A DNA stretch of 64,000 nt from positions 21,122,501-21,186,500 of the forward strand of contig AP031352.1 of assembly GCA_037833965.1 (NCBI GenBank). Direction: 5' to 3'. Both the position numbers and the translations under genes were made by a program. How positions within the stretch are numbered: the first letter of the stretch is position 1; every line of letters begins with the position of its first letter. Below the pieces are notes generated by a model. The model was not told where the DNA came from, did not search any database, and saw only the letters and a program-made list of their open reading frames with translations. Positions 1,030-44,942 of the stretch are shown here, piece after piece. This stretch comes from Marchantia polymorpha subsp. ruderalis. Its lineage: Eukaryota > Streptophyta > Marchantiopsida > Marchantiales > Marchantiaceae.

Positions 1030-2215
1030 TGTGGTACCCCACTTTTGGCAATTTTGAGAAAATTAAAACATTTTTTGGAAAACTGTACCCTGGCAGCATT
1101 GTAAATAGCCTTCGGTACATCAAAACAGAGTGCATCCGGAAGATCGCGGGGATTCTCGAGGGATCTTGTAGAATCTGGGATTTGGGGTGCCGCAGCAAGC
1201 ACAGGCACCACCCTCCCTGCGAGCTACGCAGTTAGGATCTCTACGGCGCAAGGCGCAAAACCCGCCTTCGGAGGTTGCGGCCGCGGCTGTAGGGAAACCC
1301 CCGTAATTAGGTAAACCCTCGGGCGCCTTGACCAAGTTAGGGTCCAGTTGGAAAGAGCTCGACGCGCTGATTCTAACGAGCCCCAGAGCGCTTGGAACGG
1401 ACGAGGACTTAGGGAGTTATCGCTACTGGAAGAAACGGAGGCGGTCGCCTACGGCGGAAGGAGTTCGCCACCGGCGCGAATTCCGCCTACGCGGAAGGGG
1501 GATTCAAGTTTTGTCCTATGCGCGGACGAAGGCGTTCGCCTGTGCACAGGCACTTTGGCGTCGGCGGGAAATCCGCCTTGGGCCCTAGAAATGCGCCTTG
1601 TGAGGTAGAAAGTGTACGGCGCCTTCCGCGCCAGCGCAGCGCAGCGTACGTCGGAAGAGCCGCCAGAGTAATCCAATAGGTACGGACCGTGCGGACGGCA
1701 CGGGTGGATGCGCTCTTGGACGGACGGAGTTGCGGCGGCGGAAGCGCCGACGGAGAGACAAGGAACGGACAGACTGGACGGAGACGGCTGACCACGGTCA
1801 ACGCCTTCCGCGCCAGCGCAGCGCCGCGGACGGAGTTCGCCTGCGCACAGGCGAACGCCTGTGCACAGGAGGATGTTCAAGTTCCGCGCCGGCGGAGAAT
1901 CCGCCGAGGCCCCTGCCTGCGCACAGGCAGGAGTTGAATTTTTGTCCGACATGCGGACGCACGCGTCAAGGCAGAAGGAGATTGGCCGAAGGGCGGTACG
2001 AACAAGTGTACCGCGCAAGGCGGAAAACTCGCCTTCGGCGCTACGCCCCCATGTCCGGAGGGTGACACGCTCGCGGAGTTCAAATCCGCCAATTCGAGCG
2101 TGAGAGTTTAATCGACGACGGCGGAGCGTGAAGCCGCGCGTGAGAGCGAAGACCGTTCCAGCGTACAGCCGGCGCGGCCATCAAGTGAGACGTTCTTCAC
2201 GACCAAGAGACGACC
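1030..2215 (+). other. U3 leader of the 5' LTR, non-coding, rich in short palindromes
   Basis: There is no convincing gene here; the short ORFs are shadows of GC-rich dyads. Visible content: the LTR start (1030-1150), the recurrent inverted-repeat module around 1348-1392, and many copies of hairpin motifs such as GCCTGTGCACAGGC (1538-1551 and again in 1835-1872) and CGCCTTCGGCG variants. A promoter for the downstream ORF would have to lie here, but I see no clear TATA box. The same layout precedes the ORF in the other family-1 LTRs. Confidence 0.7.
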
Positions 2216-5200
2216 ATGACCTTCGACCGGGCGGCGGAGAGCGTCCCATTCTTGAATTCGCGATTCCAATCTCTTGTGCGCGCTGCGCGCATCCATCTGC
2301 TGGCTGCGGACCATTCTCGTCGTCGTCGCACAGGAGATTTCTTGTTGATTGAGGGAGAAGTGAGTGCGCGTGATTTGGAATTGAGAGCGATTAGAGTTTG
2401 CCGAGAGAGAAAGAAACGCGGACAGTGCGGAAGTAGAATGAGCGGGCGAGCGAACCCCAGGAACGCAATGACGAGACCGAGCAGATTGCGGATGGTGCCA
2501 CTTCGCCTGCCGCAGAACGGGCTGCGCGCTTTCGAAGAGCGCTTAATAGCAAGAAAGCTCGATTTCTTGCTATGGGGATGGAATTACATCTGCGCGAATA
2601 TGGTGCGCGAGTGGCTAGAGCCACAGGGACCACCCTCGCGCGGATTGCGTCCGCATGTTGATCGGTGGACAGTCCAAGATTGGGCGCAGGCGTTGGGAAG
2701 ATGTGCTGGCATGCCAGGGCATCTCCTTTTCGACAGCGAGAGCATCAAGGTGACCAAGCAAGAAGAGGCGCAATTTGTGGAGCTGTTCAAGACCGGGAGG
2801 TCTACCAAGAATGGGTACAGGACCCGTGATTACAAAGATCGATTTCGCCGGACTTTGTCCGCGGCGCTGATGCAATTACTGCAGCCGCACCGCGCCTGCT
2901 ACATCACATTGTGGCAGGTCTCTTTTGTGGAGTGCGTCATCGAGGGAACTCCAATTCACTGGGCGAGCATCCTGCACAGGGTGATGCGACAGCACGCGTT
3001 TGAGGAGAAGGGGGGAACTCTAAACCATCTTTCTCCTTTCCTCATCAATTTTTATCGACAGCGGAATTGTTTGACAGCGGCGGAGCTTGAACATTTTCCG
3101 CCATTGTCCATCGACCATCCCGGGAAGTATGTGCGGGAGAACGAGGTCGACACTGATGCGGAGGAGTCCCCGACTTCTACCCCATCGAGACGGAGAGACG
3201 AAGGGAGACACACCCCTGCAGCGCGAGTGCCGCGGAAGCGGCGATGGAGGGAAGAGTCCGAAGAGGAGCAGCATCAAGAACCCTCTGCTCCCATTCGACC
3301 GCGGCCGCTGTGCGAGCCATACAGCCGGCCGAAGCAGAAGGCACGCAGACTGGTGTTGCCAGCTGACAGTGCAGATACGGCGACGATTGCGACGGAGATA
3401 GGAAGTGCGTCGCCAGAGAGGCGAGAGGAAGCGCGGACGACCGCAGGAGCGACGGGCCACGCTGCAACCTCGTCGGGAGAGAGGCCGCCTACGGGCCAAG
3501 GGCCTCCGGAGTTACCACGTGCGATGCGGACAGATGTTCCGTTTGCGCACAGGCGAACCTCCGCGGACGGACGAGCCTCCGCGGACCGGCGAACACAAGT
3601 GGACGTGGATCTACGCTTACGCGTGGGAAGGAGCAGTCCGCCTGTGCACAGGCGCTCGCCTGTGCACAGGTCGCCTGTGAACAGAACACCTCCACACGTG
3701 CCGCCTGTGCACAGGCAAGAATCACCCCCGTTCCAACGTAGGAAGGGGAAGGAGCCGGCGGAAGAACCGCCTACGAGACACCGGCCCTCGGGGCCAGACC
3801 CTCCGGCGCACCACGCGCCGCAATTCGCGCCTTCGGCGCCAGGGCCTTCGAGCCGAGGGGATACGAGCAGAGAGCGTGCGGAGGCCGCACCGTCGGCGGA
3901 AAGTCCGCCGATAGATGCGCCTTCGGCGGTAGGGCCTATAGGCCAAGGAACATCGGGCGTGCGGCCCCCGGCCATGTCGCCTTCGGCGATAGATGTCCGC
4001 GGCGCTACGCCTGCGGCGGACAAGGCGCCGGCACATGCGCCTGCGCACGGGCCGGGCACAGCCCCCACGGACCGATCAAGGGAGCAGCAGACGGAGGAGC
4101 GGAGTGACTGTCAGCGGGATGAAATCTCGATGCGCGATGCGCAATCCAACCCCGCGCAGCCACCCTCCGCTCAATCACCTCCGGCGACGGACGACAGAGG
4201 CAGAGAGGATGCGGTAGACCATCAACAAGCGAGAGACGGGGATGCCGCACGGATACATTCGCCTTCCGCCTTAGACATTTTGGCGACGAGCAGCGAGGCT
4301 GCAGCCGTGCCTTCGCAGGCAGCACACGTCGAGGATGTGCAGCCCCACTCGGGGCAGTCGCCGACGCAATCAATGGCGACTGAAATTCTCCACTCGGATG
4401 ATGACGACGGAGGCTCCACGGAAGAAATGTCAGGAGCAGAAGACACCGAGGAGGAGGAGGAGGAAATTGTTGGAGCACCGGCGGCGGCGCTCTCTGAGCA
4501 GGTGATTCCGTTGCTGCGGTACTTGGATCGCAAGGTCGATAAATACGCCGACCCACTCCAGCCGGGATCTTACATCGAGTTAGTGCGCAGGAGGACTCGC
4601 ACTAAAGTCCACACCAGCAAGCTATTAGCTAGAGTGGACCAGGAGTTGAGGGACTTGAAGGAGAAGCATGAGTGCTTGTGGGGACAGTACAAGCTTAATC
4701 AGAAATTCTACAAGCACTCCGAGAAGATGAAGGATGAGAAACTGGGCGAGCTCACCAAGGAGCAGGTGAAGGTCAAGGAGGCACTCAACTCTGAGCAGGC
4801 CCAGAATCGGATTTTGTCAGAGGAGCTCGTGCGACAGACGCGCTTGTTGGAACAATGTCAGCTCGCACGGCAGGCGGATGAAGAATTAATCCGCAGGTTA
4901 CAGTCAGAGTGTGGCGAATTGAGGGCGCAACGTGCTGAAGCCGAATCGCAATTAGTGACCATTGAAGAGGATCGCAGGAAGGAGGCGGATCGCACGAAGG
5001 TGGAGACGGCGAGGCGAGTCGCCCACTGTCTCAAGGGCTACGCCCACTGGGAAGTGAAGGCGCAGGAGAAACTCACACTGCGTGAGTTTGAATTGTGCGC
5101 AGCCGGGTTGTTGTCAGGCGACAGTAGGAGTCGGCGGAAGGTAGCGAAGAAGCTCGAGGCCTTTCTGTCGAAGGCACAGGATACCATGTCCGCCCTCGAG

Positions 5201-5353
5201 GGGGAGGTGTCCGCGGCGTTGCAGCGGTTGGGACTGCGTAGTCGAGCGGAAGAGTGGCAGGGTAGGGAGTTAGTGCGCGGCAGTCGGCCGCGCAGGAGAC
5301 GTAGTACAGGTTCCGCGGAGTGTAGTGTAGCGTGGTTCCGTGCAGGCGTGTAG
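2216..5353 (+). CDS. U3-encoded ORF of family-1 LTR, 1045 aa, function unknown
   Basis: This is the only full-length, uninterrupted copy in the window. The start is an ATG in good plant context (GACC-ATG-ACC), conserved in H, H2 and the 3' LTR. Residues 1-310 form a conserved domain with invariant motifs (LDFLLWGWN, LGRCAG, TRDYKDR, WQVSFVE, RQHAFEEKGGTLNHLSPF) also found in family 2. About 310-750 is a Pro/Ser/Ala/Arg-rich linker containing PVHR repeats encoded by CGCCTGTGCACAGGCG palindromes and ending in an acidic DDDD/EEEEEE stretch. About 755-1000 is a predicted coiled-coil region (LLRYLDRK, then Leu/Glu/Gln/Arg heptads, GYAHWEV). The C-terminus is very basic (RPRRRR). There is no signal peptide, membrane segment, zinc knuckle or enzyme motif. 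It is not the element's Gag, which is encoded internally. I do not recognise the family; a nucleic-acid-binding or structural accessory role is only a guess. Confidence 0.85.
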   Translation: MTFDRAAESVPFLNSRFQSLVRAARIHLLAADHSRRRRTGDFLLIEGEVSARDLELRAIRVCRERKKRGQCGSRMSGRANPRNAMTRPSRLRMVPLRLPQNGLRAFEERLIARKLDFLLWGWNYICANMVREWLEPQGPPSRGLRPHVDRWTVQDWAQALGRCAGMPGHLLFDSESIKVTKQEEAQFVELFKTGRSTKNGYRTRDYKDRFRRTLSAALMQLLQPHRACYITLWQVSFVECVIEGTPIHWASILHRVMRQHAFEEKGGTLNHLSPFLINFYRQRNCLTAAELEHFPPLSIDHPGKYVRENEVDTDAEESPTSTPSRRRDEGRHTPAARVPRKRRWREESEEEQHQEPSAPIRPRPLCEPYSRPKQKARRLVLPADSADTATIATEIGSASPERREEARTTAGATGHAATSSGERPPTGQGPPELPRAMRTDVPFAHRRTSADGRASADRRTQVDVDLRLRVGRSSPPVHRRSPVHRSPVNRTPPHVPPVHRQESPPFQRRKGKEPAEEPPTRHRPSGPDPPAHHAPQFAPSAPGPSSRGDTSRERAEAAPSAESPPIDAPSAVGPIGQGTSGVRPPAMSPSAIDVRGATPAADKAPAHAPAHGPGTAPTDRSREQQTEERSDCQRDEISMRDAQSNPAQPPSAQSPPATDDRGREDAVDHQQARDGDAARIHSPSALDILATSSEAAAVPSQAAHVEDVQPHSGQSPTQSMATEILHSDDDDGGSTEEMSGAEDTEEEEEEIVGAPAAALSEQVIPLLRYLDRKVDKYADPLQPGSYIELVRRRTRTKVHTSKLLARVDQELRDLKEKHECLWGQYKLNQKFYKHSEKMKDEKLGELTKEQVKVKEALNSEQAQNRILSEELVRQTRLLEQCQLARQADEELIRRLQSECGELRAQRAEAESQLVTIEEDRRKEADRTKVETARRVAHCLKGYAHWEVKAQEKLTLREFELCAAGLLSGDSRSRRKVAKKLEAFLSKAQDTMSALEGEVSAALQRLGLRSRAEEWQGRELVRGSRPRRRRSTGSAECSVAWFRAGV

Positions 5354-5389
5354 CGTAGTGCAGTGTAGTGTTAGGTAGGACTTAGAAGG

Positions 5390-5418
5390 TATAAAATAGT
5401 TCCAGGCGTTTTGCCTGG
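5390..5418 (+). promoter_or_regulatory. LTR promoter: TATA box plus conserved hairpin
   Basis: TATAAAATA (5390-5398) lies 37 bp after the U3 ORF stop. It is followed at once by a stem-loop CCAGGC-GTTTT-GCCTGG (5402-5418). The transcription start is expected at about 5420, so the hairpin lies at or just upstream of the start of R. In other LTRs the stem is CAAGGC/GCCTTG, a compensatory change. Confidence 0.8.
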
Positions 5419-5419
5419 G

Positions 5420-6359
5420 GTTCTTTCCCATCAGAAGTGCAGATCAGGAACCCATTTCCTTTGCGTGTTTGTGTCCTTGAGTTCTGTCACCACGCACGAG
5501 GAGTTACAACTTAGCGTTCCGCATTTTGTAACTGAAGGCCTTCGGCCGAATGTTCAGAGCTAGTCCATTGGTTAGAGAATTGAGTAGTTCGGAACAGCAC
5601 CTGCGGGTGACTGCCGATGCTCAGAGCCAGTGACTAGTTAGATACTTGAACAGTTTCGCCCCTACACCTTCGAGTGTTTCTTCCTGATTGTACTCCCTTG
5701 GGATTTTTCCCCTGAATGCCAAAGTGAAGTTTTGCTACTTCGTGTAAGCCTTGGTTGTAAATTCAGGTTACGCTGCAGCAGGTGCCTTGAGGGTAACCCC
5801 TGTAGTATTTCTGGGAATGACAAGTGCCTGAGAATTCAAACTCTTCAATAGACTGTTGTTGTGTTACTGGAATGTTTCTCAGTGAGTCCTTCAGTGCGGA
5901 CCTGTGTTCTCTGCGCGTTTTGTGAGTTGAGAGTGTTGTTCACCGCGTATGAGTGACTTCGATCCGAAGTAGGCAGTCCAAACCGGGTTTCCTACACTAG
6001 CAGCAAGCTAGTGGAAGTGTTGTAAAAGCCGGAGTTGGGAGTCACTGCCCGCAGCTTTGCCGAGTGTGCTCGCGAGAGACTTTTCCCCCCTGAAATCTGG
6101 AGTAGAGGTCCTAACGGATCTCTGGGTTGTGTTTCTGTAGTTTCAGGTGTGTGTGTGTGTGTTACGCTGCACTGTGCGACCTCCGAGTGCGCTCCGAGTG
6201 GACACTTGCAGTATTTCTGGGAGTGACAGTCGCCTGAGAATTCAAACTCATCAATAGTCTGTTAAACGTGACACTTTGTACCCTGTGTGTTCCTCTGTCC
6301 TTGTGGGTTCGACCTTTCTACCACTATATTGCAGTTTTAGCCTTTAGTGGGTTATTACA
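5420..6359 (+). other. R-U5 of the 5' LTR, untranslated leader
   Basis: The end of R cannot be placed. The region includes the GGCCTTCGGCC dyad (5541-5551), the duplicated block at 5802-5857 and 6208-6262, a GT run, and the terminal GTGGGTTATTACA. The short ORF at 6035-6226 has no conservation beyond DNA identity between LTRs and is not called. Confidence 0.7.
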
Positions 6360-6381
6360 TAAGAAGCCGACAACTTCTTTT

Positions 6382-6400
6382 TGGCGCCGCTGCCGGGGAC
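6382..6400 (+). promoter_or_regulatory. Primer binding site, tRNA-Asp type
   Basis: TGGCGCCGCTGCCGGGGAC is the complement of a plant tRNA-Asp 3' end with about one mismatch in the first 18 bases, the primer type known for Athila-like elements. It lies 22 bp after the LTR end, which is an unusually long spacer. Confidence 0.85.
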
Positions 6401-6445: not shown

Positions 6446-9277
6446 ATGTCGACTGGGGCTGGCGGGAGCAATCTAAGTGCTAGGGCTGTCCGCAAGTTCC
6501 GACGAGATTCAGAGAAGGCCGTGGAAGAGACACGGCGTCAAAACAAGAAAACACCAAGAAGAGTACCTAAGCCTAGTTCGGCCGACATCCTTGGGGAACC
6601 TACCCCCGGCGACTCGGAACCAAACTTGGTGCTTACAGTTCTACTAGATATTCCTTGCACGGACCCGCCTAGTGAAGTAGAACCGACCGCCCGAGGACCG
6701 TCGACAGACACACTGATGGCGGACGGACAAGCCAATGTGCGGCTACCTCAGCCGATTACTAAACATTCCTACCCGAAGTACAAAGGAAGTGGGGATGACG
6801 ACGATGCAGATTCATACATCAAGTTATTCGAGTCGGTGTCTATTGCCAATCGCGAGATCGCAGACGACGACCGACTAAGGATCTTTCCAAGCCTTCTGCG
6901 GAAGAAAGCGAGGAGTTGGTATAATCACGAGAGCATCGATCCGACTGGGTTGACAACATGGGTCCAGCTGAAGGAGAAGTTCCTTCGTCGCTTTCGCGAG
7001 CTCGGCTACGACAGCCGGGTTTTGACGAAGTTACGTAATTTGCAGCGAGAGAAGAAGGAGAGTCTGCGTGACTACACTGAGAGATTTCTGGACCTCCTCG
7101 ACAGAATACCGAAAACAGGACCAGGGTCCCCTTTCTCGGTACAACAAGCTGTGGATTGGTACGTGACCGGTTTAACTCGGGAGATGGAGACTTTTTGCCG
7201 ACGCAGCAAGTGCGACACTATTGAGGATGTGATTGCATCGGCAGAAGCCTTCGAAACTTCCACTCTCAACCGAAGAGGGAGAGAGAGAAGGGAGTCGAAG
7301 GAGCGCAAACCGAAAGGAGGGCGAAGACGGCGTAGAGGTACAACTCCGTCATCGGAGGAATCGTCTTCGGACGAGAACCGTTCTTCATCCGAAGAAGAGG
7401 AAACCTCATCGTCGGAGGAGGAGAAGAAGAGGAAGAAGCATGGGTCAGCAAAGAAAAAGGGCATCCGACGAGTGACTACGGACAGAGCGCCGGGAGATAT
7501 AGCTTCGAAGATGGAGACCCTGGTGAAGGACTTCGCCGATCTCAAGGTTCAAGTGGTAGGCGGGCATGATCGCAGAAAATCACCCGGGAGAGTGCGAGCG
7601 AACTTATGGTGTACTACGTGCGGGGCGGTGGGACATGCAAACACCGAGTGCCTTACCACCCGGCCGTCATATCCAGTCAACGCAGTAGAGTGGGCGCAAC
7701 CGTACTATGGAGAGCACCCTCAGTACTATGGAGAGGCTAGCGAAGAGACAGCCTACGCCGTCCAGTCGGTGCCTACCCCTCCTGCAGTTTCAGCAATGCA
7801 AGTCCCACGATATATTCCGGTGGATCGGGCCACTACGGTACCTGTGAGGCGGAGAGCACCTCCAGGGACGTTTGACCCACCGCCACCGCGAGCTTGTTAT
7901 AATTGCGGGGAAGTTGGGCACTTCTCACCGCAGTGTCCCCATCCAAAAAGGCGAAACGATTATGCTCCGACATGTAGTAATTGCAAGAAGGTCGGGCACA
8001 CTGCGCCAGAGTGTGATCAGCCACCAGTCCCTCGGCCAGTGGTACGATTTGTGAACACTCCTGCCAAGGAGGACGTGCAAGTTAACCAGGTCGAAGTAGG
8101 TTCAGACGGGGATGGCGAAGACGAAGAATGGCCGGCTGAAGAGGTTATGTGCGCACGGGTCGAAACTCGTAGCTCCAAGAAATCCAAGGAGCAAGAGCGT
8201 GACACTCGCAAGCACGAACGGAGAACCGCCGACCGGACGGGAAAAGGAAAGGAGAAGACATCCAGCAAGTCCGACTCGCGACCTGCTCGGAAGTCTTCGG
8301 CTACGCGGGAGGCACCAGCAGTGCGCCCCCAGACAGCAGTCGAGGACGAGCCAGTGCGCCTACTGAAACGGGACTATGCTCCGGATATCCGCAACGAGGT
8401 AACCAACCTGTTGAAGGAAGCGATCCGCACGCAAAAGGACCCACCGCGGCCAGACTTGACATCCTCCCTTGGGGCGAAGTTGGCAGCCACCGTGGAACCT
8501 CGCAGAGCGTCGCCGACCCCGGTGCCCCAACGCGCCCACTATGACTTGGTTGAAGATCTCGGGAGTCGAAAAGTGAACATTACGTTCAAGCAGCTCTTGG
8601 AGGACAATAAGACGTATCGGAGGATGTTGATGCTTTCGCTACGGCATCCGCGGAAGCCGCGCGCATCCACATCCTCTCAAGTATATCAAGTGGAGAGCGA
8701 AGACCAAGGGCCACCCGAGATCGATGTGGAGATAGCAGGATGTTGTGTACGCAGAGTGCCAATCGACTCTGGATCAGGAGTCAACATAATGACGGAGGAT
8801 ACAGCGAGAGCCTTGGGGTTCAGTCAATACGAACCCTCGAAGCGTGTGTTGAGATTAGCGGATCAGACGCGGAGAATGCCTGCAGGTATGCTGCGCAATG
8901 TCAAGACAACCATCGGGGGTGCGGACTTTCGGTTGACGTATATCATCCTTCAGCCGATGATGAAGCAGGGCTATGACGTTCTGCTCGGGCGACCATGGCT
9001 ATATGGTGCACAAGTCAGATGTGATTGGCGAAGACATCGCCTTAAGTTTCCTCACCCTTCGGAACTGACCAAAACCATTACGGTGCCCTGGAATAGGGTC
9101 AGGCACGAAGGAGAGACCCCATCGACAAGTGCAGGTTACACATCGGGCGAGGACAGTGAGTCGACCGCGCGATCGGATTCCAGTGGTACCGAATCCGATT
9201 ACTTCGTAGGATTCGTTGCCTGCTGTTCGGTGGAAGAAGAAGAAGAGACGGAAGCTATTCAGCCGGAAGACGAATAG
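6446..9277 (+). CDS. gag-pro: Gag-protease polyprotein of element B (943 aa)
   Basis: Residues about 105-275 are a retrotransposon Gag (capsid) domain (KKARSWYNHES, LKEKFLRRFRELG, LRDYTERFLDLL). About 275-345 is a highly charged R/K/E/S-rich nucleocapsid-like segment. Three CX2CX4HX4C zinc knuckles follow near residues 389, 483 and 508. A retropepsin-type aspartic protease lies at about 755-870, with catalytic DSGSG near 772 and the ILLGRPW-type flap (VLLGRPWLYG). The ATG is the first after the primer site and keeps the whole Gag domain. The ORF ends in a UAG followed by CAATTA, and pol continues in the same frame, so most translation should give Gag-Pro and a fraction Gag-Pro-Pol. It acts in the cytoplasmic virus-like particle. 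No disabling mutation is seen. Confidence 0.93.
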   Translation: MSTGAGGSNLSARAVRKFRRDSEKAVEETRRQNKKTPRRVPKPSSADILGEPTPGDSEPNLVLTVLLDIPCTDPPSEVEPTARGPSTDTLMADGQANVRLPQPITKHSYPKYKGSGDDDDADSYIKLFESVSIANREIADDDRLRIFPSLLRKKARSWYNHESIDPTGLTTWVQLKEKFLRRFRELGYDSRVLTKLRNLQREKKESLRDYTERFLDLLDRIPKTGPGSPFSVQQAVDWYVTGLTREMETFCRRSKCDTIEDVIASAEAFETSTLNRRGRERRESKERKPKGGRRRRRGTTPSSEESSSDENRSSSEEEETSSSEEEKKRKKHGSAKKKGIRRVTTDRAPGDIASKMETLVKDFADLKVQVVGGHDRRKSPGRVRANLWCTTCGAVGHANTECLTTRPSYPVNAVEWAQPYYGEHPQYYGEASEETAYAVQSVPTPPAVSAMQVPRYIPVDRATTVPVRRRAPPGTFDPPPPRACYNCGEVGHFSPQCPHPKRRNDYAPTCSNCKKVGHTAPECDQPPVPRPVVRFVNTPAKEDVQVNQVEVGSDGDGEDEEWPAEEVMCARVETRSSKKSKEQERDTRKHERRTADRTGKGKEKTSSKSDSRPARKSSATREAPAVRPQTAVEDEPVRLLKRDYAPDIRNEVTNLLKEAIRTQKDPPRPDLTSSLGAKLAATVEPRRASPTPVPQRAHYDLVEDLGSRKVNITFKQLLEDNKTYRRMLMLSLRHPRKPRASTSSQVYQVESEDQGPPEIDVEIAGCCVRRVPIDSGSGVNIMTEDTARALGFSQYEPSKRVLRLADQTRRMPAGMLRNVKTTIGGADFRLTYIILQPMMKQGYDVLLGRPWLYGAQVRCDWRRHRLKFPHPSELTKTITVPWNRVRHEGETPSTSAGYTSGEDSESTARSDSSGTESDYFVGFVACCSVEEEEETEAIQPEDE

Positions 9278-9283
9278 CAATTA
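9275..9283 (+). promoter_or_regulatory. Programmed stop-codon readthrough site between gag-pro and pol
   Basis: TAG CAA TTA matches the UAG-CAR-YYA readthrough motif known from tobacco mosaic virus. Gag-pro and pol are in the same frame, with no other stop between them and no ATG at the start of pol. The identical nine bases occur at the same place in B-rev (27571-27579). Confidence 0.85.
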
Positions 9284-12118
9284 ACTGTGGGACTGGGAAG
9301 GAGTGAGACGAGTCACACTGAGGGCATTGTCGACCCTAGTGACTGTCATGAAGTACAACTCAGTCCCGGCAAATGCTTGAAGGTATCAAGCGCAGTGAGA
9401 GGAGACGAGCTAAGGAAAGTACAGGCGTTCCTTAGCCACTATGTCGACGTCTTCGCTTGGAAGATCGAAGACATGAAGGGGATACCCGCACGATATGGGG
9501 AACACCGTATCGATTTACTGGACGACTCAGTACCCATACGACAGCGCCAGTATCGCCTCAACCCAAAGTACTCCTTGCTAGTGAAAGAGGAGATAGATAA
9601 GTACTTGAGCGCTGGTATTATTTATCCTGTGCTCAGCAGCGAGTGGGTGTCGCCGATTGTTATCGTACCTAAGAAGTTGACGGGTAAGATACGAGTGTGT
9701 CAGGATTTCCGGAAGTTGAATGCAGCAACACGCAAGGATCATCACCCGTTACCATTCACGGATGCCATTCTAGACCATGTTGCCGGACATGAATGTTATA
9801 GCTTCCTGGATGGGTTCTCAGGTTACAATCAGGTGTCTATCCGTGAACAGGACAAGGATAAAACTACGTTCACAACCGACTGGGGAACTTACGCATACCA
9901 CAAGATGCCCTTCGGTCTGTGCAACGCGCCTGCCACCTTTCAACGGATGATGACCAATATCTTTCAGGAACAACTGAGGAAGTTCCTGGAGATATTCATA
10001 GATGACTTCTGTGTCTTTGGGAAGCGGTCTGAACACCTAAGTCACTTGAAGCAGACCTTCGATAAATGTAGAGAGAGTAGTTTATCACTGCATCCCGAGA
10101 AGTGCTTTTTCTTCATGACTAGTGGGATCTTGTTGGGTCATCGGGTCTCGGCAGAAGGCATTGCGGTGGACATCGAGAAGGTCAAGGTTATACTCGAGCT
10201 TGAGCCACCCACGAATCTAAGAGAGCTGCGAGCATTCCTGGGTCATGTGGGCTACTACCGAAGATTCATACACATGTATGCAATACTGGCGGCGGACCTG
10301 ACCAAGTTGTTGAAGAAGGACGAGCCTTATGCTTGGGGTGCGAACCAGCAGACAGCATTTGAAGCTCTGAAAGCGAAACTCACGACTGCTCCCGTACTAA
10401 GGAGTCCAGACTGGAATCGACCATTCCATGTTTACGTTGACACTTCGGCATTCGCCATCGGTGTAGTACTGAGTCAAAAGGATGACAACAAAAAGGACTA
10501 CCCGATCTACTTCGCGAGCCGACAGCTGTCTCTAGCAGAGCGGAAGTACACCACGACGGAGAGAGAAGCGTTGGGGATGGTATACTCCTGTAAGAAGTTC
10601 CGTCACTACCTAATCTGTTACGAGTTTGTGTTCCATGTGGACCACTACGCATTGCAACACCTAGTCAAGAAAGCCGACCTATCCGGTCGAATCGCCAGGT
10701 GGGTGTTGTTACTACAAGAGTTCACCTACACAGTCCAGACCAGGAAAGGGGTGCACCACGAAAATGCGGATTACTTGTCCCGATTATGGACCCAGCCGAC
10801 AGAGGAGGAATTGGTGGACGATTTTCCAGATGAAGAGTTATTTCAGTTGTCTGCAGGACATGAGTCCCGCTATGCCGACCTGTATCGATATCTGTTAACC
10901 CTCCAGTGCCCCGAGGGCATGGATTTGGAACAGCGAACTGTCTTTACTCATAAGGCAGGCCCGTATCAACTCCAGCAGGGGGTTTTGTTCAAGAAGATGG
11001 CGGATGAGCGCTTATGCAGATGCCTGGAGGAATCAGAAGTACCAAGAATAGTGAGTGCGATGCATACAGAGGAGGCGGGTGGACACTATGCCACCAGGAA
11101 CACGGTCACAAAGATCCTAAACGCGGGGTATTGGTGGCCGACCATGTTTAAGGATGTTCTCGATTACATCCGCAAGTGCGACAGTTGCCAGAGGACGGGG
11201 AGACCGACGCCTACAACACGCTGGCCTCTGACTCCCATCATGCCTCTAGCACCTTTCGAAAAGTGGGGTATTGACTTTGTAGGGCCGATACAACCAGTGA
11301 CTAGAAGTACACGAAGGCGCTACATTCTGGTAGCAACGGACTACGCCACCAAAATGGTAGAGGCCAGAGCCACCAGAAAGGATGATGCTGCCACAGTGGC
11401 AGCATTCTTGTTTGAGTCGATCATCACACGCTACGGATGTCCCTTAGAACTAGTCAGCGACCGGGGCACGCATTTTCTGAATCAGATCATCGAAGATCTG
11501 ACACGGTATTTCCACATCAAGCACCGGAAGACTACTCCATATAATCCCAAGGCAAATGGACTGACGGAGAAGTCCAATGGTCTGCTGTGTAAAATACTAC
11601 TCAAGGTCACGGTGAATCACGCTCACGACTGGGATACGAAGCTAGCAGCCGCTCTATGGGCGTACCGCACAGCTGAGAAGATCACGACCAAACAGACACC
11701 ATACTTTCTAGTGTATGGGCAACACCCGATCCTCCCAATCGAATTTGAAGTACCCACCCATCGAACGATGGATTTGCAGAGGATGGGCGCAGAGGAGAGT
11801 CAGCTCTACAGGTTACAGGAGGTCATGCTGCTGGATGAGCGGAGAAGAGACGCCGAAGATCGCACCAGGAAAATCCAGCTCCGCCGAAAGGAGAGATACG
11901 ATAAAAAGATCAAACCGGTACTCCTGCAGGCGGGTGATTTGGCATTGCTCTACGACAGCAGACATGCCAGGTTCCCAGGCAAACTGCACCTAAGATGGAT
12001 GGGACCTTACAGGGTTGTCGAAGTCTTCCCGAATGGGTCCATCCAACTTGCGGACCTGGCCGGCGATTTGTTAGGCACCCGAGTGAACGGGTGGCGGTTG
12101 AAGAAATACCACATGTGA
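9278..12118 (+). CDS. pol: Pol polyprotein of element B: RT, RNase H, integrase
   Basis: The frame is open from the codon after the UAG; the first residues have no ATG, consistent with synthesis as a Gag-Pol fusion. Reverse transcriptase: SEWVSPIVIVPKK, DFRKLN, MPFGLCNAPATFQRMM and catalytic FIDDFC (near 9995). RNase H: YVDTSAFAIGVVLSQ, TEREALG and HVDHYAL. Integrase: HHCC zinc finger (about 11060-11190), then a D, D-35-E triad in GIDFVG (about 11270), SDRGTHF (about 11457) and GLTEKSN (about 11562). A GPY/F-like module (MGPYRVVEV) closes the protein; no chromodomain follows. FIDDFC and the tRNA-Asp primer point to the Athila-like branch. All catalytic residues are present, so the element looks coding-competent. 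About 945 codons. Confidence 0.95.
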   Translation, partial: QLTVGLGRSETSHTEGIVDPSDCHEVQLSPGKCLKVSSAVRGDELRKVQAFLSHYVDVFAWKIEDMKGIPARYGEHRIDLLDDSVPIRQRQYRLNPKYSLLVKEEIDKYLSAGIIYPVLSSEWVSPIVIVPKKLTGKIRVCQDFRKLNAATRKDHHPLPFTDAILDHVAGHECYSFLDGFSGYNQVSIREQDKDKTTFTTDWGTYAYHKMPFGLCNAPATFQRMMTNIFQEQLRKFLEIFIDDFCVFGKRSEHLSHLKQTFDKCRESSLSLHPEKCFFFMTSGILLGHRVSAEGIAVDIEKVKVILELEPPTNLRELRAFLGHVGYYRRFIHMYAILAADLTKLLKKDEPYAWGANQQTAFEALKAKLTTAPVLRSPDWNRPFHVYVDTSAFAIGVVLSQKDDNKKDYPIYFASRQLSLAERKYTTTEREALGMVYSCKKFRHYLICYEFVFHVDHYALQHLVKKADLSGRIARWVLLLQEFTYTVQTRKGVHHENADYLSRLWTQPTEEELVDDFPDEELFQLSAGHESRYADLYRYLLTLQCPEGMDLEQRTVFTHKAGPYQLQQGVLFKKMADERLCRCLEESEVPRIVSAMHTEEAGGHYATRNTVTKILNAGYWWPTMFKDVLDYIRKCDSCQRTGRPTPTTRWPLTPIMPLAPFEKWGIDFVGPIQPVTRSTRRRYILVATDYATKMVEARATRKDDAATVAAFLFESIITRYGCPLELVSDRGTHFLNQIIEDLTRYFHIKHRKTTPYNPKANGLTEKSNGLLCKILLKVTVNHAHDWDTKLAAALWAYRTAEKITTKQTPYFLVYGQHPILPIEFEVPTHRTMDLQRMGAEESQLYRLQEVMLLDERRRDAEDRTRKIQLRRKERYDKKIKPVLLQAGDLALLYDSRHARFPGKLHLRWMGPYRVVEVFPNGSIQLADLAGDLLGTRVNGWRLKKYHM

Positions 12119-12140
12119 GTGTTCGCGTGGGCGCTCACAA

Positions 12141-12155
12141 TTGAGGAGGGGGGCA
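12141..12155 (+). promoter_or_regulatory. Polypurine tract of element B
   Basis: A purine run, GAGGAGGGGGG (12143-12153), followed by CA lies directly before the 3' LTR start TGTGG at 12156; this is the plus-strand primer. The same tract occurs at the same place in B-rev (complement of about 24664-24677). Confidence 0.8.
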
Positions 12156-13341
12156 TGTGGTACCCCACTTTTGGCAATTTTGAGAAAATTAAAACATTTT
12201 TTGGAAAACTGTACCCTGGCAGCATTGTAAATAGCCTTCGGTACATCAAAACAGAGTGCATCCGGAAGATCGCGGGGATTCTCGAGGGATCTTGTAGAAT
12301 CTGGGATTTGGGGTGCCGCAGCAAGCACAGGCACCACCCTCCCTGCGAGCTCCGCAGTTAGGATCTCTACGGCGCAAGGCGCAAAACCCGCCTTCGGAGG
12401 TTGCGGCCGCGGCTGTAGGGAAACCCCCGTAATTAGGTAAACCCTCGGGCGCCTTGACCAAGTTAGGGTCCGGTTGGAAAGAGCTCGACGCGCTGATTCT
12501 AACGAGCCCCAGAGCGCTTGGAACGGACGAGGACTTAGGGAGTTATCGCTACTGGAAGAAACGGAGGCGGTCGCCTACGGCGGAAGGAGTTCGCCACCGG
12601 CGCGAATTCCGCCTACGCGGAAGGGGGATTCAAGTTTTGTCCTATGCGCGGACGAAGGCGTTCGCCTGTGCACAGGCACTTCGGCGTCGGCGGGAAATCC
12701 GCCTTGGGCCCTAGAAATGCGCCTTGTGAGGTAGAAAGTGTACGGCGCCTTCCGCGCCAGCGCAGCACAGCGTACGTCGGAAGAGCCGCCAGAGTAATCC
12801 AATAGGTACGGACCGTGCGGACGGCACGGGTGGATGCGCTCTTGGACGGACGGAGTTGCGGCGGCGGAAGCGCCGACGGAGAGACAAGGAACGGACAGAC
12901 TGGACGGAGACGGCTGACCACGGTCAACGCCTTCCGCGCCAGCGCAGCGCCGCGGACGGAGTTCGCCTGCGCACAGGCGAACGCCTGTGCACAGGAGGAT
13001 GTTCAAGTTCCGCGCCGGCGGAGAATCCGCCGAGGCCCCTGCCTGCGCACAGGCAGGAGTTGAATTTTTGTCCGACATGCGGACGCACGCGTCAAGGCAG
13101 AAGGAGATTGGCCGAAGGGCGGTACGAACAAGTGTACCGCGCAAGGCGGAAAACTCGCCTTCGGCGCTACGCCCCCATGTCCGGAGGGTGACACGCTCGC
13201 GGAGTTCAAATCCGCCAATTCGAGCGTGAGAGTTTAATCGACGACGGCGGAGCGTGAAGCCGCGCGTGAGAGCGAAGACCGTTCCAGCGTACAGCCGGCG
13301 CGGCCATCAAGTGAGACGTTCTTCACGACCAAGAGACGACC

Positions 13342-14865
13342 ATGACCTTCGACCGGGCGGTGGAGAGCGTCCCATTCTTGAATTCGCGATTCCAATCTCT
13401 AGTGCGCGCTGCGCGCATCCATCTGCTGGCTGCGGACCATTCTCGTCGTCGTCGCACAGGAGATTTCTTGTTGATTGAGGGAGAAGTGAGTGCGCGTGAT
13501 TTGGAATTGAGAGCGATTAGAGTTTGCCGAGAGAGAAAGAAACGCGGACAGTGCGGAAGTAGAATGAGCGGGCGAGCGAACCCCAGGAACGCAATGACGA
13601 GACCGAGCAGATTGCGGATGGTGCCACTTCGCCTGCCGCAGAACGGGCTGCGCGCTTTCGAAGAGCGCTTAATAGCAAGAAAGCTCGATTTCTTGCTATG
13701 GGGATGGAATTACATCTGCGCGAATATGGTGCGCGAGTGGCTAGAGCCACAGGGACCACCCTCGCGCGGATTGCGTCCGCATGTTGATCGGTGGACAGTC
13801 CAAGATTGGGCGCAGGCGTTGGGAAGATGTGCTGGCATGCCAGGGCATCTCCTTTTCGACAGCGAGAGCATCAAGGTGACCAAGCAAGAAGAGGCGCAAT
13901 TTGTGGAGCTGTTCAAGACCGGGAGGTCTACCAAGAATGGGTACAGGACCCGTGATTACAAAGATCGATTTCGCCGGACTTTGTCCGCGGCGCTGATGCA
14001 ATTACTGCAGCCGCACCGCGCCTGCTACATCACATTGTGGCAGGTCTCTTTTGTGGAGTGCGTCATCGAGGGAACTCCAATTCACTGGGCGAGCATCCTG
14101 CACAGGGTGATGCGACAGCACCCGTTTGAGGAGAAGGGGGGAACTCTAAACCATCTTTCTCCTTTCCTCATCAATTTTTATCGACAGCGGAATTGTTTGA
14201 CAGCGGCGGAGCTTGAACATTTTCCGCCATTGTCCATCGACCATCCCGGGAAGTATGTGCGGGAGAACGAGGTCGACACTGATGCGGAGGAGTCCCCGAC
14301 TTCTACCCCATCGAGACGGAGAGACGAAGGGAGACACACCCCTGCAGCGCGAGTGCCGCGGAAGCGACGATGGAGGGAAGAGTCCGAAGAGGAGCAGCAT
14401 CAAGAACCCTCTGCTCCCATTCGACCGCGGCCGCTGTGCGAGCCATACAGCCGGCCGAAGCAGAAGGCACGCAGACTGGTGTTGCCAGCTGACAGTGCAG
14501 ATACGGCGACGATTGCGACGGAGATAGGAAGTGCGTCGCCAGAGAGGCGAGAGGAAGCGCGGACGACCGCAGGAGCGACGGGCCACGCTGCAACCTCGTC
14601 GGGAGAGAGGCCGCCTACGGGCCAAGGGCCTCCGGAGTTACCACGTGCGATGCGGACAGATGTTCCGTTTGCGCACAGGCGAGGGGGAGGTGCCGCGGAC
14701 ACCTCCCTCGAGGGGGAGGTGTCCGCGGCGTTGCAGCGGTTGGGACTGCGTAGTCGAGCGGAAGAGTGGCAGGGTAGGGAGTTAGTGCGCGGCAGTCGGC
14801 CGCGCAGGAGACGTAGTACAGGTTCCGCGGAGTGTAGTGTAGCGTGGTTCCGTGCAGGCGTGTAG
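13342..14865 (+). CDS. U3 ORF of the 3' LTR, 507 aa, internally deleted in frame
   Basis: It has the same ATG and the same conserved N-terminal domain (residues 1-310) as the 1045-aa copy. Residues about 448-985 of the long form (most of the linker, the acidic stretch and the coiled coil) are missing, and only the final C-terminal segment (LEGEVSAALQRL to the basic end) remains. The loss is 538 codons exactly, so the frame is kept. The junction contains a short fold-back insertion. Near the 3' end of genomic RNA this copy would follow pol. Function is unknown, and the loss of the coiled coil probably alters it. Confidence 0.8.
   Translation: MTFDRAVESVPFLNSRFQSLVRAARIHLLAADHSRRRRTGDFLLIEGEVSARDLELRAIRVCRERKKRGQCGSRMSGRANPRNAMTRPSRLRMVPLRLPQNGLRAFEERLIARKLDFLLWGWNYICANMVREWLEPQGPPSRGLRPHVDRWTVQDWAQALGRCAGMPGHLLFDSESIKVTKQEEAQFVELFKTGRSTKNGYRTRDYKDRFRRTLSAALMQLLQPHRACYITLWQVSFVECVIEGTPIHWASILHRVMRQHPFEEKGGTLNHLSPFLINFYRQRNCLTAAELEHFPPLSIDHPGKYVRENEVDTDAEESPTSTPSRRRDEGRHTPAARVPRKRRWREESEEEQHQEPSAPIRPRPLCEPYSRPKQKARRLVLPADSADTATIATEIGSASPERREEARTTAGATGHAATSSGERPPTGQGPPELPRAMRTDVPFAHRRGGGAADTSLEGEVSAALQRLGLRSRAEEWQGRELVRGSRPRRRRSTGSAECSVAWFRAGV
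14682..14728 (+). other. Deletion junction with templated fold-back insert
   Basis: Arms CCGCGGACACCTCC (14693-14706) and GGAGGTGTCCGCGG (14715-14728) form a perfect 14 bp inverted repeat around an 8 bp loop. The right arm is native LTR sequence; the left arm is an inverted copy. It is preceded by AGGGGGAGGTG, a direct copy of the same region. Confidence 0.85.
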
Positions 14866-14901
14866 CGTAGTGCAGTGTAGTGTTAGGTAGGACTTAGAAG
14901 G

Positions 14902-14930
14902 TATAAAATAGTTCCAGGCGTTTTGCCTGG
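14902..14930 (+). promoter_or_regulatory. 3' LTR TATA box plus hairpin
   Basis: TATAAAATA (14902) and CCAGGC-GTTTT-GCCTGG (14914-14930), as in the 5' LTR. Confidence 0.75.
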
Positions 14931-15886
14931 GGTTCTTTCCCATCAGAAGTGCAGATCAGGAACCCATTTCCTTTGCGTGTTTGTGTCCTTGAGTTCTGTC
15001 ACCACGCACGAGGAGTTACAACTTAGCGTTCCGCATTTTGTAACTGAAGGCCTTCGGCCGAATGTTCAGAGCTAGTCCATTGGTTAGAGAATTGAGTAGT
15101 TCGGAACAGCACCTGCGGGTGACTGCCGATGCTCAGAGCCAGTGACTAGTTAGATACTTGAACAGTTTCGCCCCTACACCTTCGAGTGTTTCTTCCTGAT
15201 TGTACTCCCTTGGGATTTTTCCCCTGAATGCCAAAGTGAAGTTTTGCTACTTCGTGTAAGCCTTGGTTGTAAATTCAGGTTACGCTGCAGCAGGTGCCTT
15301 GAGGGTAACCCCTGTAGTATTTCTGGGAATGACAAGTGCCTGAGAATTCAAACTCTTCAATAGACTGTTGTTGTGTTACTGGAATGTTTCTCAGTGAGTC
15401 CTTCAGTGCGGACCTGTGTTCTCTGCGCGTTTTGTGAGTTGAGAGTGTTGTTCACCGCGTATGAGTGACTTCAATCCGAAGTAGGCAGTCCAAACCGGGT
15501 TTCCTACACTAGCAGCAAGCTAGTGGAAGTGTTGTAAAAGCCGGAGTTGGGAGTCACTGCCCGCAGCTTTGCCGAGTGTGCTCGCGAGAGACTTTTCCCC
15601 CCTGAAATCTGGAGTAGAGGTCCTAACGGATCTCTGGGTTGTGTTTCTGTAGTTTCAGGTGTGTGTGTGTGTGTTACGCTGCACTGTGCGACCTCCGAGT
15701 GCGCTCCGAGTGGACACTTGCAGTATTTCTGGGAGTGACAGTCGCCTGAGAATTCAAACTCATCAATAGTCTGTTAAACGTGACACTTTGTACCCTGTGT
15801 GTTCCTCTGTCCTTGTGGGTTCGACCTTTCTACCACTATATTGCAGTTTTAGCCTTTAGTGGGTTATTACATAAGAAGCCGAGGTT

Positions 15887-31436: not shown

Positions 31437-32637
31437 TGTGGTACCCCACTTTTGGTAATTTTGAGGAAATAAAAACATTTTTGGAAAACTGTACCACGGC
31501 AGCAGTGTAAATAGCCTTCGGTGCATCAAAATAGAGTGAATTCGGAAGATCGCAGAGATTCTCGAGGGAACTCGTAGAATCTAGGAGTTGGGTGCAGCGT
31601 CAAGGAAGGACACCACCCTCCCTGCGAGCTCTGAAGGTATGATCCCTTCGGCGCAAGGCGCAAAATCCGCCTTCGGCGCTGCGCCCTAGGCGGTAGGGAA
31701 ATCCTCCATATTTAGGTCAACCCCCAAATGCCTTGACCTGGTTAGGGTTTCGTTGGAAAGAGCTCGACGCGCTGATTCCAACGAGCCCAACAACGGATGA
31801 GGACTCCGGGAGTTATGAAGGTTGTAAGATACTCAGCTTTCCGCCTGCGCACAGGCGAAGAAAGTTTTGTCCTATGCGCGGACGAAGGAAGTTCGCCTGC
31901 GCACAGGCGAAATAGGGTTTTGATGTAGGCGCGAAGTTCGCCTACGCATAGGCGTCCGCCTGTGCACAGGCGCTTCGGCGACGGCGGGAAATCCGCCTTC
32001 GGCCCTAGAAATGCGCCTTCGGAGGTAGAAATTGTACGGCGCCTTCTGCGCCAGCGCAACGGCGCGGACGAGCAAGGAGCCGCCAGAATAGTAAAATTCG
32101 TACGGACCGTACGGACTGTACGGACGGGACGGATGGATGCTCTCGTGGTCGGGCGGAGTTGCGGCGGCGAGAGTGCCGACGGAGAGACAAGGAACGGACA
32201 GTCTGGGGGGAGGCTGTTGACCGCGGTCAACGCCTTCCGCGCCAACGCATCGACGCGGACGGACTTCGCCTACGCGCAGGCGAGCGCCTGCGCACAGGCG
32301 GGTGAAGTTCCGCGCCGGCGGAGAATCCGCAAAAGTGTGCCTGCGCACAGGCGGGTGTTGAACTTTTGTCCGACGTGCGGATGGGCGCCGGGGCGGAGGA
32401 GGATTGGCTGAGGAGCGATACGAACGAGTGTACCGCGCAAGGCGGAAAAGACGCCTTCAACGCTGCGCACCCATGTCTGTGGCGTAGTACGCTTGCGGAG
32501 TTCAAATTCGCCAATTCGAGCGTGTGAGTTAAATCGGCGTCGGCGGAGCGTGAAGCCGCGCGTGAGAGCGGAGACCGTTTTAGCGTAGAGCCGGCGCGGC
32601 CATCAATTGAGTCGACCCTCACGAGCAAGAGCCGACT
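31437..32637 (+). other. U3 leader of LTR H, non-coding
   Basis: Equivalent to 1030-2215. It contains the inverted-repeat module (31750-31795) and many CGCCTGCGCACAGGCG-type dyads (for example near 31845, 31900 and 32280). No gene is supported. Confidence 0.7.
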
Positions 32638-32682
32638 ATGACCTTCGACCGGGAGACGGAGAGCGTTCCATTCTTGAATTCG
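32638..32682 (+). pseudogene. U3 ORF of LTR H, first 15 codons
   Basis: The family ATG (MTFDRE) at 32638, followed by the conserved start, is cut at 32682 by solo LTR S1; the frame resumes at 36638 after the ATTCG duplication. Confidence 0.85.
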
Positions 32683-33330
32683 TGTGGTACCCCACTTTTG
32701 GCAATTTTGAGGAAATTAAAACATTTTTGGAAAACTGTACCCTGGCAGCATTGTAAATAGCCTTCGGTACATCAAAACAGAGTGAATCCGGAAGATCGCG
32801 GGGATTCTCGAGGGATCTTGTAGAATCTGGGATTTGGGGTGCAGTAGTAAGGTCAGGCACCACCCTCCCTGCGAGCTCCGCAGTTAGGATCTCTACGGCG
32901 CAAGGCGCAAAACCCGCCTTCGGAGGTTGCGTCCGCGGCTGTAGGGAAACCCTCGTAATTAGGTAACCCTCGGGCGCCTTGACCAAGTTAGGATCCCGTT
33001 GGAAAGAGCTCGACGCGCTGATTCCAACGAGCCCAAGAACGCTTGGAACGGACGAGGACTTAGGGAGTTATTGCTACTGGAAGAAACGGAGGCGGTCGCC
33101 TGCGGCGGAAGGAGTTCGCCACCGGCGCGAATTCCGCCTGCGCGGAAGGGGGATTCAAGTTTTGTCCTATGCGCGGACGAAGGCGTTCGCCTGTGCACAG
33201 GCGAAGTAGGGTTAGGGAAGGCGCGAAGTCCGCCTACGCACAGGCGTTCGCCTGTGCACAGGCACTTCGGCGTCGGCGGGAGATCCGCCTTGGGCCCTAG
33301 AAATGCGCCTTGTGAGGTAGAAAGTGTACG

Positions 33331-35622: not shown

Positions 35623-35658
35623 CGTAGTGCAGTGTAGTGTTAGGTAGGACTTAGAAGG

Positions 35659-35687
35659 TATAAAATAGTTCCAGGCGTTTTGCCTGG
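35659..35687 (+). promoter_or_regulatory. S1 TATA box plus hairpin
   Basis: TATAAAATA (35659) and CCAGGC-GTTTT-GCCTGG (35671-35687). R-U5 follows to 36632 and has no gene. Confidence 0.75.
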
Positions 35688-38811: not shown

Positions 38812-38815
38812 TTTT

Positions 38816-38834
38816 TGGTTCCGTTGCCGGGACC
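38816..38834 (+). promoter_or_regulatory. Primer binding site of element A, tRNA-Asp-like
   Basis: TGGTTCCGTTGCCGGGACC begins 5 bp after the LTR. It resembles the tRNA-Asp complement seen in element B, with mismatches at positions 4-5 and near the end. The exact primer tRNA is uncertain. Confidence 0.65.
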
Positions 38835-38890
38835 TCAATCTAGAAGGCGGAATGTTTAGGATTCGATTTCTAGCTCGAGAGAAAGTATCC

Positions 38891-39932: not shown

Positions 39933-39934
39933 AG

Positions 39935-40099: not shown

Positions 40100-40124
40100 G
40101 AAGCCCCATATAAATTTCCAATAG

Positions 40125-40151
40125 AAAAAAAAAAAAAAAAAAAAAAAAAAA
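40125..40151 (+). repeat. Poly(A) tract of 27 bases before gag-pol
   Basis: An uninterrupted A run, 26 bp after the stop of the last leader ORF and 10 bp before the gag-pol ATG. Confidence 0.95.
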
Positions 40152-40161
40152 TTAGTTGGAA

Positions 40162-44928: not shown

Positions 44929-44942
44929 TGAAATCTTGGTCC

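What the first reader, a model, noticed from the sequence alone, without database searches (positions are those of the whole stretch)
1030..6359. A kilobase-scale protein gene carried inside U3 of giant LTRs
Seen: in family 1 and family 2 the long ORF lies between the LTR 5' terminus and the LTR TATA box, and solo LTRs with target duplications (S1, H, F2a, H2) confirm it is LTR, not internal, sequence. Element B separately encodes complete Gag-Pro-Pol, so the ORF is extra. Known parallel: MMTV encodes Sag in U3. Inference: each insertion installs two copies, the 3' copy lies downstream of pol in genomic RNA, and solo-LTR formation keeps one gene, so this is a way of spreading a gene that does not depend on keeping the element.
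Basis: partly seen in the sequence, partly recalled or inferred. Interest (0 to 1): 0.9.

Follow-up and report, generated by a model that had tools for sequence, protein, structure and literature searches.

The report
Conserved gene inside a retrotransposon's LTR
A jumping element in a liverwort genome (most likely Marchantia) carries, inside its unusually long terminal repeats, a conserved gene for a protein of about 1,050 amino acids that is separate from the genes it needs to copy itself.

Summary
Element B (1030-15871) is a Ty3/Gypsy-type retrotransposon whose 5,330-bp LTR holds a 1,054-codon ORF (2189-5353) ending 36 bp before the LTR's only TATA-like site (5390); Gag-Pro and Pol lie elsewhere. 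The frame is not chance: the longest ORF in 500 simulated LTRs was 347 codons, and pooled dN/dS in 11 pieces of copies not picked by this protein is 0.11 (N-terminal domain) to 0.50, against 0.78-2.1 in shifted frames. In the genome, 9 of 20 fetched copies are solo LTRs with exact 5-bp target duplications, 7 of them intact; 5 of 5 elements picked by pol carry the ORF in the 3' LTR (4 intact). An older family (56-59% identical over the N-terminal region) has it in solo LTRs too. Every named relative listed is from Marchantia polymorpha; the ORF has no Pfam, PDB or fold match. Best reading: a U3-encoded accessory protein of the element, placed like MMTV Sag but unrelated to it, without transmembrane segment, probably nuclear and oligomeric. 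Function and transcript are not shown. The LTR also carries 6-9 copies of a palindrome (CCTGYGCACAGG) confined to this family in the window, a candidate target. New variant of a known kind.

The parts
1030..6359 (+). 5' LTR of element B (TGTGG...TTATTACA), U3 of about 4.36 kb up to the TATA box
2189..5353 (+). U3 ORF, 1,054 codons stop to stop; first ATG at 2216 (1,045 aa)
2216..2467 (+). N-terminal extension, weaker constraint (pooled dN/dS 0.50)
2468..3190 (+). conserved N-terminal domain (pooled dN/dS 0.11), predicted mostly helical at low confidence; ATG 2468 aligns with the first Met of several Marchantia relatives
3191..4588 (+). low-complexity Pro/Ser/Gln/Ala-rich middle with basic clusters (pooled dN/dS 0.41)
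4589..5350 (+). coiled-coil-like C-terminal part (pooled dN/dS 0.30); the conserved LDRK..KY..P..SYIELVRRRTRTK motif straddles its start
   Evidence: coiled coil judged by eye
1539..1927 (+). four CCTGYGCACAGG sites in non-coding U3 (1539, 1840, 1858, 1916)
3641..3715 (+). three more CCTGTGCACAGG sites inside the ORF middle (encode PVHR repeats)
5390..5399 (+). TATA box TATAAAATAG, start of the genomic transcript expected just downstream
6360..6381 (+). 22-nt hairpin-like spacer between LTR end and PBS
6382..6400 (+). primer binding site TGGCGCCGCTGCCGGGGAC (tRNA-Asp type by recall)
6446..9277 (+). Gag-Pro ORF (Retrotrans_gag, zinc knuckles, aspartyl protease)
9278..12118 (+). Pol ORF (RT, RNase H, integrase), same frame after one stop; no chromodomain found
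12136..12155 (+). polypurine tract CACAATTGAGGAGGGGGGCA
12156..15871 (+). 3' LTR of element B with a 1.6-kb internal deletion; truncated ORF 13315-14865 (516 codons)
31437..60323 (+). older family-1 solo LTR split by nested insertions, TSD TGATT
32683..36632 (+). solo LTR nested in it, TSD ATTCG, 5' part of the ORF deleted
53954..59233 (+). full-length solo LTR, flanks AGTGT/AGTGC, ORF in three pieces (frameshifts)

Best explanation
The ORF is a genuine accessory gene of a Ty3/Gypsy-type retrotransposon lineage in Marchantia, lodged wholly inside U3. SHOWN: it is LTR sequence, extra to Gag-Pro-Pol, kept in frame by purifying selection, and inside the LTR in two families whose ORFs are 56-59% identical in the N-terminal region, and apparently (one locus, no duplication checked) in a third. 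INFERRED: (1) it entered U3 when the polypurine tract that marks the start of U3 shifted upstream of a gene lying 3' of pol, so that reverse transcription copies the gene into both LTRs; (2) it is expressed from the 3' LTR copy (spliced subgenomic RNA of the element, or a TATA-less promoter in the first 1.1 kb of U3) and possibly from solo LTRs; (3) the product, with a conserved N-terminal domain, a low-complexity basic middle and a coiled-coil-like C-terminus, but no transmembrane segment or zinc knuckle found, works in trans in the nucleus as an oligomer that helps the element, most likely against silencing or in control of its own LTR; (4) selection acts while elements replicate, and copies decay after insertion.
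For: Structure. Chance: 347 codons at most in 500 simulations against 1,054. Selection: 11 pieces from 9 LTR copies not picked by ORF protein similarity; pooled dN/dS 0.50 / 0.114 / 0.41 / 0.30 for the four ORF parts, shifted frames 0.78-2.1, third-position excess p from 1.6e-5 to 1.9e-43; pol 0.052 for one pair of copies. Elements picked by pol (5 of 48 listed): 5 of 5 carry the ORF in the 3' LTR, 4 intact. Solo LTRs with exact TSD: 9 of 20, 7 intact. Older family, 4 LTRs followed: 2 with exact TSD, 1 with 4 of 5 bases, 1 start not found. Distant family: polypurine tract|TGTG between pol and a truncated ORF copy at one locus, L053. No transmembrane segment (max 19-residue hydropathy 1.14), clusters PRKRRW, RRRTRTK, PRRRR. 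Decay after insertion: singleton N:S 80:83 plus 3 stops, shared 32:55 with no stop, neutral expectation about 67:29 (10 copies).
Against: No transcript, splice junction or protein was seen. A crude splice scan found one mediocre donor (6147) and two weak acceptor-like sites (12184, 12349), about 1 kb before the ATG and none close to it; six ATGs opening short frames lie between LTR start and 2216. The nuclear and coiled-coil readings rest on composition. The fold models are poor (pLDDT 37 and 56) and match nothing. The upstream shift of the polypurine tract is unsupported: no relative with the ORF outside the LTR was found, and few loci could be read. The middle and the N-terminal extension are only moderately constrained (0.41, 0.50), and the ORF as a whole less than pol.
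Confidence: 0.55

Rival explanations
1. The protein serves particle assembly or movement (a structural or envelope-like 3' gene) rather than nuclear control.
For: It lies downstream of pol in genomic order, where env-like genes of plant elements are described (passage of PMC11963269); it has a coiled-coil-like part.
Against: No transmembrane segment (max hydropathy 1.14) and no zinc-knuckle-like motif; basic clusters; no consistent Pfam match (no family hit by more than 3 of 39 members).
Confidence: 0.2
2. The ORF is a passenger that is no longer needed: a captured gene kept open only because copies are young.
For: The 44 listed protein matches are 98-100% identical; the 48 listed pol copies are 99-100%; singletons show relaxed constraint.
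Against: The frame bias is strong between copies with dS of about 0.2-0.5 and between families with near-saturated dS; domain order is shared by diverged relatives.
Confidence: 0.08
3. The ORF is a host gene fragment or domesticated gene and the LTR copies are secondary captures.
For: All named relatives listed are annotated Marchantia proteins.
Against: The relatives are spread over many contigs and look like repeat-derived gene models; one (P0096) joins an integrase end to the ORF; no single-copy host locus was noticed, though only the best matches were scored and none was sought as such.
Confidence: 0.07
4. The palindrome-rich U3 and the ORF form a cis-acting or RNA-level device (replication, packaging or recombination), and the coding constraint is incidental.
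For: 31 palindrome-like sites in the window, all in family-1 LTR stretches, 0.01 matches expected per shuffle; some lie inside the ORF.
Against: Constraint follows codon positions, strongest in the N-terminal domain, which holds none of these sites in the window LTR.
Confidence: 0.05

Closest known systems
MMTV superantigen gene sag (passages of PMC3026287 read)
   Same: A whole accessory protein gene inside the LTR, making it unusually long (about 1.3 kb there); almost all endogenous copies are said to keep the gene intact while virion genes are mutated.
   Different: No sequence or fold relation found; here 1,054 codons in a 5.3-kb LTR of a plant element without a recognised envelope gene; Sag is an immune-acting protein made from spliced RNAs, whereas here transcript and function are unknown.
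Extra ORFs of plant Gypsy lineages (Ogre, Retand, Athila; PMC6317226, passages and one section read)
   Same: Non-gag-pol ORF in large-LTR plant Gypsy elements; LTRs up to about 5 kb are reported there.
   Different: [quoted passage not shown] no ORF inside the LTR is mentioned in the passages read. None of their named domains (plant mobile domain, Transposase_28, Athila ORF-1) was hit here.
Retrosat2 / RIRE3 / RIRE8 ORF0 of rice (PMC3485330, passages read)
   Same: Large LTRs (Retrosat2 over 3.2 kb) and one extra ORF of unknown function, evolving faster than the polyprotein ORF.
   Different: ORF0 lies upstream of the gag-pol ORF and is not described as LTR sequence in the passages read; not compared directly, and the protein searches listed no named rice protein.
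VANC anti-silencing proteins of Arabidopsis VANDAL DNA transposons (PMC5735166, abstract and passages read)
   Same: Model for the novel case: an element-encoded protein that binds short motifs dense in its own element family.
   Different: DNA transposons (recalled), not LTR elements; motifs often form tandem repeats; homology was not tested beyond the Pfam scan.

Membership tests
Ty3/Gypsy LTR retrotransposon | LTR pair, PBS, gag, protease, RT-RNase H-integrase order, polypurine tract, short TSD | tested here: met
   element B lacks a clean TSD, but pair L025/L026 has GAACA; no RT phylogeny made
Chromovirus | C-terminal chromodomain in Pol | tested here: not met
   no chromodomain among Pfam hits of the Pol ORF
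Tat clade (Ogre/Retand) | second RNase H domain (aRH) | tested here: inconclusive
   Pfam shows one RNase H region; no phylogeny made
U3-encoded accessory gene (MMTV Sag type of arrangement) | complete protein ORF between LTR start and TATA box | tested here: met
[quoted passage not shown]
   no RNA data; crude scan gave no acceptor close to the ATG
Retroviral Sag protein family | sequence or fold homology to Sag | tested here: not met
   no named viral protein among the listed matches; no fold match (low-confidence model)
Plant eORF domain families (plant mobile domain, Transposase_28, Athila ORF-1, Transposase_32) | match to the Pfam model | tested here: not met
   none of them among the 23 families hit by any of 39 members at E up to 10; PF20167 not found in the genome, where the controls also rang nowhere
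Envelope-like 3' gene | transmembrane segment | tested here: not met
   highest 19-residue mean hydropathy 1.14

The most novel reading that the evidence does not exclude
The LTR is a self-contained gene-plus-target unit: the U3 protein binds the CCTGYGCACAGG palindromes clustered in the same U3 (6-9 per LTR copy, in family-1 LTRs only within this window) and keeps LTRs of its own family from being silenced, so every solo LTR with an intact frame could act as a trans-acting helper for the family.
Probability: 0.13. Interest if true: 0.92.

Novelty: new variant of a known kind. Interest (0 to 1): 0.72.

Why it matters
Placing a whole gene in U3 means an insertion installs two copies, and solo LTRs, usually thought of as inert scars, can keep a coding gene. 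The retroviral parallel at hand is MMTV sag; here the arrangement occurs in a plant Gypsy-type element, is old enough to be shared by diverged families, and is present in dozens of near-identical copies of what is most likely the model liverwort Marchantia. That makes direct tests of a U3 gene possible. It also warns that LTR finders and gene annotators can split such loci: the named relatives now sit in databases as 'hypothetical proteins'.

Tried and rejected
Fold identity: AlphaFold2 with 10 rows (pLDDT 37.4) and 39 rows (pLDDT 55.6, pTM 0.45); Foldseek against PDB (5 matches at E<=10) and BFVD (23) gave none at E<=0.001; PDB sequence searches gave no match at E<=1 and one at E 1.4. Pfam gave nothing for the ORF itself and only scattered weak hits for relatives (best E 0.00019, Extensin_1, 3 of 39). 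A relation to plant transposon domains (Transposase_32, plant mobile domain) looked possible by eye but could not be tested: PF20167 rang nowhere, controls included, and no member sequences were at hand.

Rejected: a chance ORF; an envelope; an internal-region gene misread as LTR. The protein-ranked copies were not used for dN/dS because that ranking favours synonymous change; a first count on them (variable sites 29, 22, 100 by codon position) is biased for that reason. In one search the last ORF part was read one base out of frame (dN/dS there 1.2-4.2); one search corrects it. L043 was left out of dN/dS (frameshifted and poorly aligned). One search timed out and was run again in shorter form.

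Paper searches. No listed title or abstract start describes a plant retrotransposon with a gene inside its LTR; only passages of a few papers were read (also PMC9985172; PMC11963269), and the library lacks most subscription journals. A genome count of the palindrome could not be made.
Full report
WHAT IS THERE. The window lies in a 241-Mb assembly of 9 contigs. A Marchantia polymorpha protein (P0001) matches this genome at 98% identity and one contig is only 5.6 Mb long, so it is most likely Marchantia polymorpha or a very close relative (inference). Element B (1030-15871) has the parts of a Ty3/Gypsy element: LTR 1030-6359, a 22-nt spacer, PBS 6382, Gag-Pro 6446-9277, one in-frame stop, Pol 9278-12118 with RT, RNase H and integrase in that order, a polypurine tract and a second LTR 12156-15871. 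Inside the first LTR lies an ORF of 1,054 codons, 2189-5353; the second LTR has lost 1.6 kb and keeps 516 codons. The only site matching TATA[AT]A in the LTR is at 5390, 36 bp after the ORF, so the ORF is U3 sequence.

IT IS NOT CHANCE. In 500 Markov simulations of the LTR the longest frame was 347 codons. Eleven pieces from nine LTR copies were compared with the ORF: six pieces from four copies in the window, three of these pieces being taken as one split LTR from their order; and L042, L044-L047, five of the six stretches picked by R-U5 DNA (L043 dropped). Pooled dN/dS: 0.50 for the N-terminal extension, 0.114 for the N-terminal domain, 0.41 for the middle, 0.30 for the C-terminal part; in the +1 and +2 frames 0.78 to 2.1. 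Pol between two copies gave 0.052. Against the window's other families dS is 1.4-2.9 and dN/dS 0.18-0.32, where dS is near saturation and the ratio is rough.

IT IS IN THE LTR. Of 20 copies fetched by protein match (L009-L028; L009 is the window's own), 9 are solo LTRs with exact 5-bp duplications, 6 are 5' LTRs followed by the spacer and PBS (in one of these the LTR start was not found), 3 are 3' LTRs after the polypurine tract, and 2 have both neighbours; the frame is at least 1,053 codons in 18 of 20 and in 7 of the 9 solo LTRs. Of the 44 copies listed, 38 have no stop inside the match; this list favours intact copies. Five elements were therefore picked by pol alone (5 of the 48 listed): all 5 have the ORF in the 3' LTR, 4 intact, one broken. 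Of the six stretches picked by R-U5, one has the intact 1,054-codon frame and five have breaks. The LTR pair L026/L025 shares TSD GAACA, differs at 5 of 5,391 sites, and both frames are intact: one young insertion, two genes.

IT IS OLD. In the P0001-type family (the LTRs followed here are 56-59% identical to the window ORF over the N-terminal region where it could be compared whole) four LTRs were followed to their 5' ends: two have exact TSDs (TGGGG, GTAAC), one matches at 4 of 5 bases, one start was not found. P0001's own locus has the same order ORF, TATAAAGTAG, R-U5. In a distant family (about 40% identical to the window ORF) locus L053 shows pol end, polypurine tract, TGTG, then a truncated ORF copy about 480 bp further on; no target duplication was checked there. 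Relatives P0089, P0117 and P0119 extend the family further; P0089 keeps both the N-terminal domain and the LDRK...SYVEIV...NRTRTK motif with a coiled-coil-like end. Of the 63 best rows of the P0001 search, 59 carry stop codons inside the match (counted by eye).

WHERE ELSE. Three protein searches gave 4, 50 and 126 relatives at E up to 1e-3, 1 and 10 (120 of the 126 listed); every listed one that bears a name is Marchantia polymorpha, the rest are unnamed. In the first two only the roughly 8,000 candidates sharing most words were scored. The ORF has no Pfam family and no PDB or predicted viral fold match; its relatives give only scattered weak Pfam hits.

HOW IT MAY WORK. The protein has no transmembrane segment, several basic clusters, a low-complexity middle and a coiled-coil-like end (the last by eye). 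An accessory protein acting in trans in the nucleus is the reading I favour. Six ATGs lie upstream of 2216 in the LTR, so the mRNA probably begins or is spliced close to the ORF; no splice acceptor close to the ATG was found in a crude scan. Change that is shared between copies is more constrained (32 nonsynonymous, 55 synonymous, no stop) than change found in one copy only (80, 83, and 3 stops), against a neutral expectation of about 67 to 29 (10 copies; no test of significance was run): selection while the element replicates, decay afterwards.

A CANDIDATE TARGET. The palindrome CCTGYGCACAGG occurs at 31 places in the window, all in family-1 LTR stretches, which make up 28.2 of 64 kb; shuffles give 0.01 matches. 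Each of the 20 fetched LTR loci holds 6-9 copies, of which two in L018 and two in L022 lie outside the LTR. In eight loci of other families (L029 and L041 overlap) it occurs in none of seven and once in L053. A general count of perfect palindromes of 12 or more bases shows only a mild excess in the non-coding U3 part (2 against 0.58 expected, largest simulated 3) and more in the ORF (5 against 1.16, largest 4). Shared ancestry explains much of the window count, but not the 7 copies within one LTR. Four lie in non-coding U3, three code for PVHR repeats. That the U3 protein binds them is a guess on the model of VANC (PMC5735166).

COMPARISON. MMTV Sag is the parallel for position and for intact survival of the gene in old copies (PMC3026287, passages). 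Plant Gypsy elements with extra ORFs and large LTRs are known (PMC6317226, PMC3485330), but the passages read place the ORF outside the LTR or do not mention it there. HIV nef and the foamy virus bel/bet genes overlap U3 in part (recalled, no call). I file it as a new variant: a known arrangement in an unrelated protein and lineage.

Noticed in passing
6360-6381; 15872-15882: A 22-nt hairpin-like spacer separates LTR and PBS in 8 of 8 LTRs followed by a PBS. Reverse transcription should add it to the 3' LTR end, yet the solo LTRs and the other 3' LTRs seen end at TTATTACA, so it must be trimmed before integration; element B's 3' LTR is followed by the first 11 nt of the spacer.
   Followed up: partly
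genome: C5 11.02-11.05 Mb, C4 10.35-10.37 Mb, C6 1.09 and 24.27 Mb, C9 4.79 Mb, C3 29.41 Mb: 14 of 40 listed internal copies lie in 6 same-strand arrays of period 11.2-11.7 kb; the C5 array is LTR-internal-LTR-internal (L014, L023, L024), as unequal recombination between the giant LTRs would give.
   Followed up: partly
5354-6359 against 53954-59233: R-U5 differs by 4% between LTR copies whose third positions in the N-terminal domain differ by about 20%: mosaic LTRs or strong constraint on R-U5.
   Followed up: no
9275-9277: Gag-Pro and Pol are in one frame separated by a single stop codon, suggesting read-through or a similar device; 46 of 48 listed pol copies have no stop in 946 codons and all are 99-100% identical, so the family was active recently.
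   Followed up: no
40156-44928: An intact 1,590-codon Gag-Pol frame of another Gypsy element between two identical 858-bp LTRs (37954-38811, 44952-45809): a very young insertion into an old family-1 LTR.
   Followed up: no
31437-60323: One old solo LTR (TSD TGATT) has been split by several nested insertions, among them two further family-1 solo LTRs.
   Followed up: partly
P0025: A Marchantia protein fuses the N-terminal domain to an unrelated charged C-terminus; probably a gene model across two repeats, possibly another extra ORF family.
   Followed up: no
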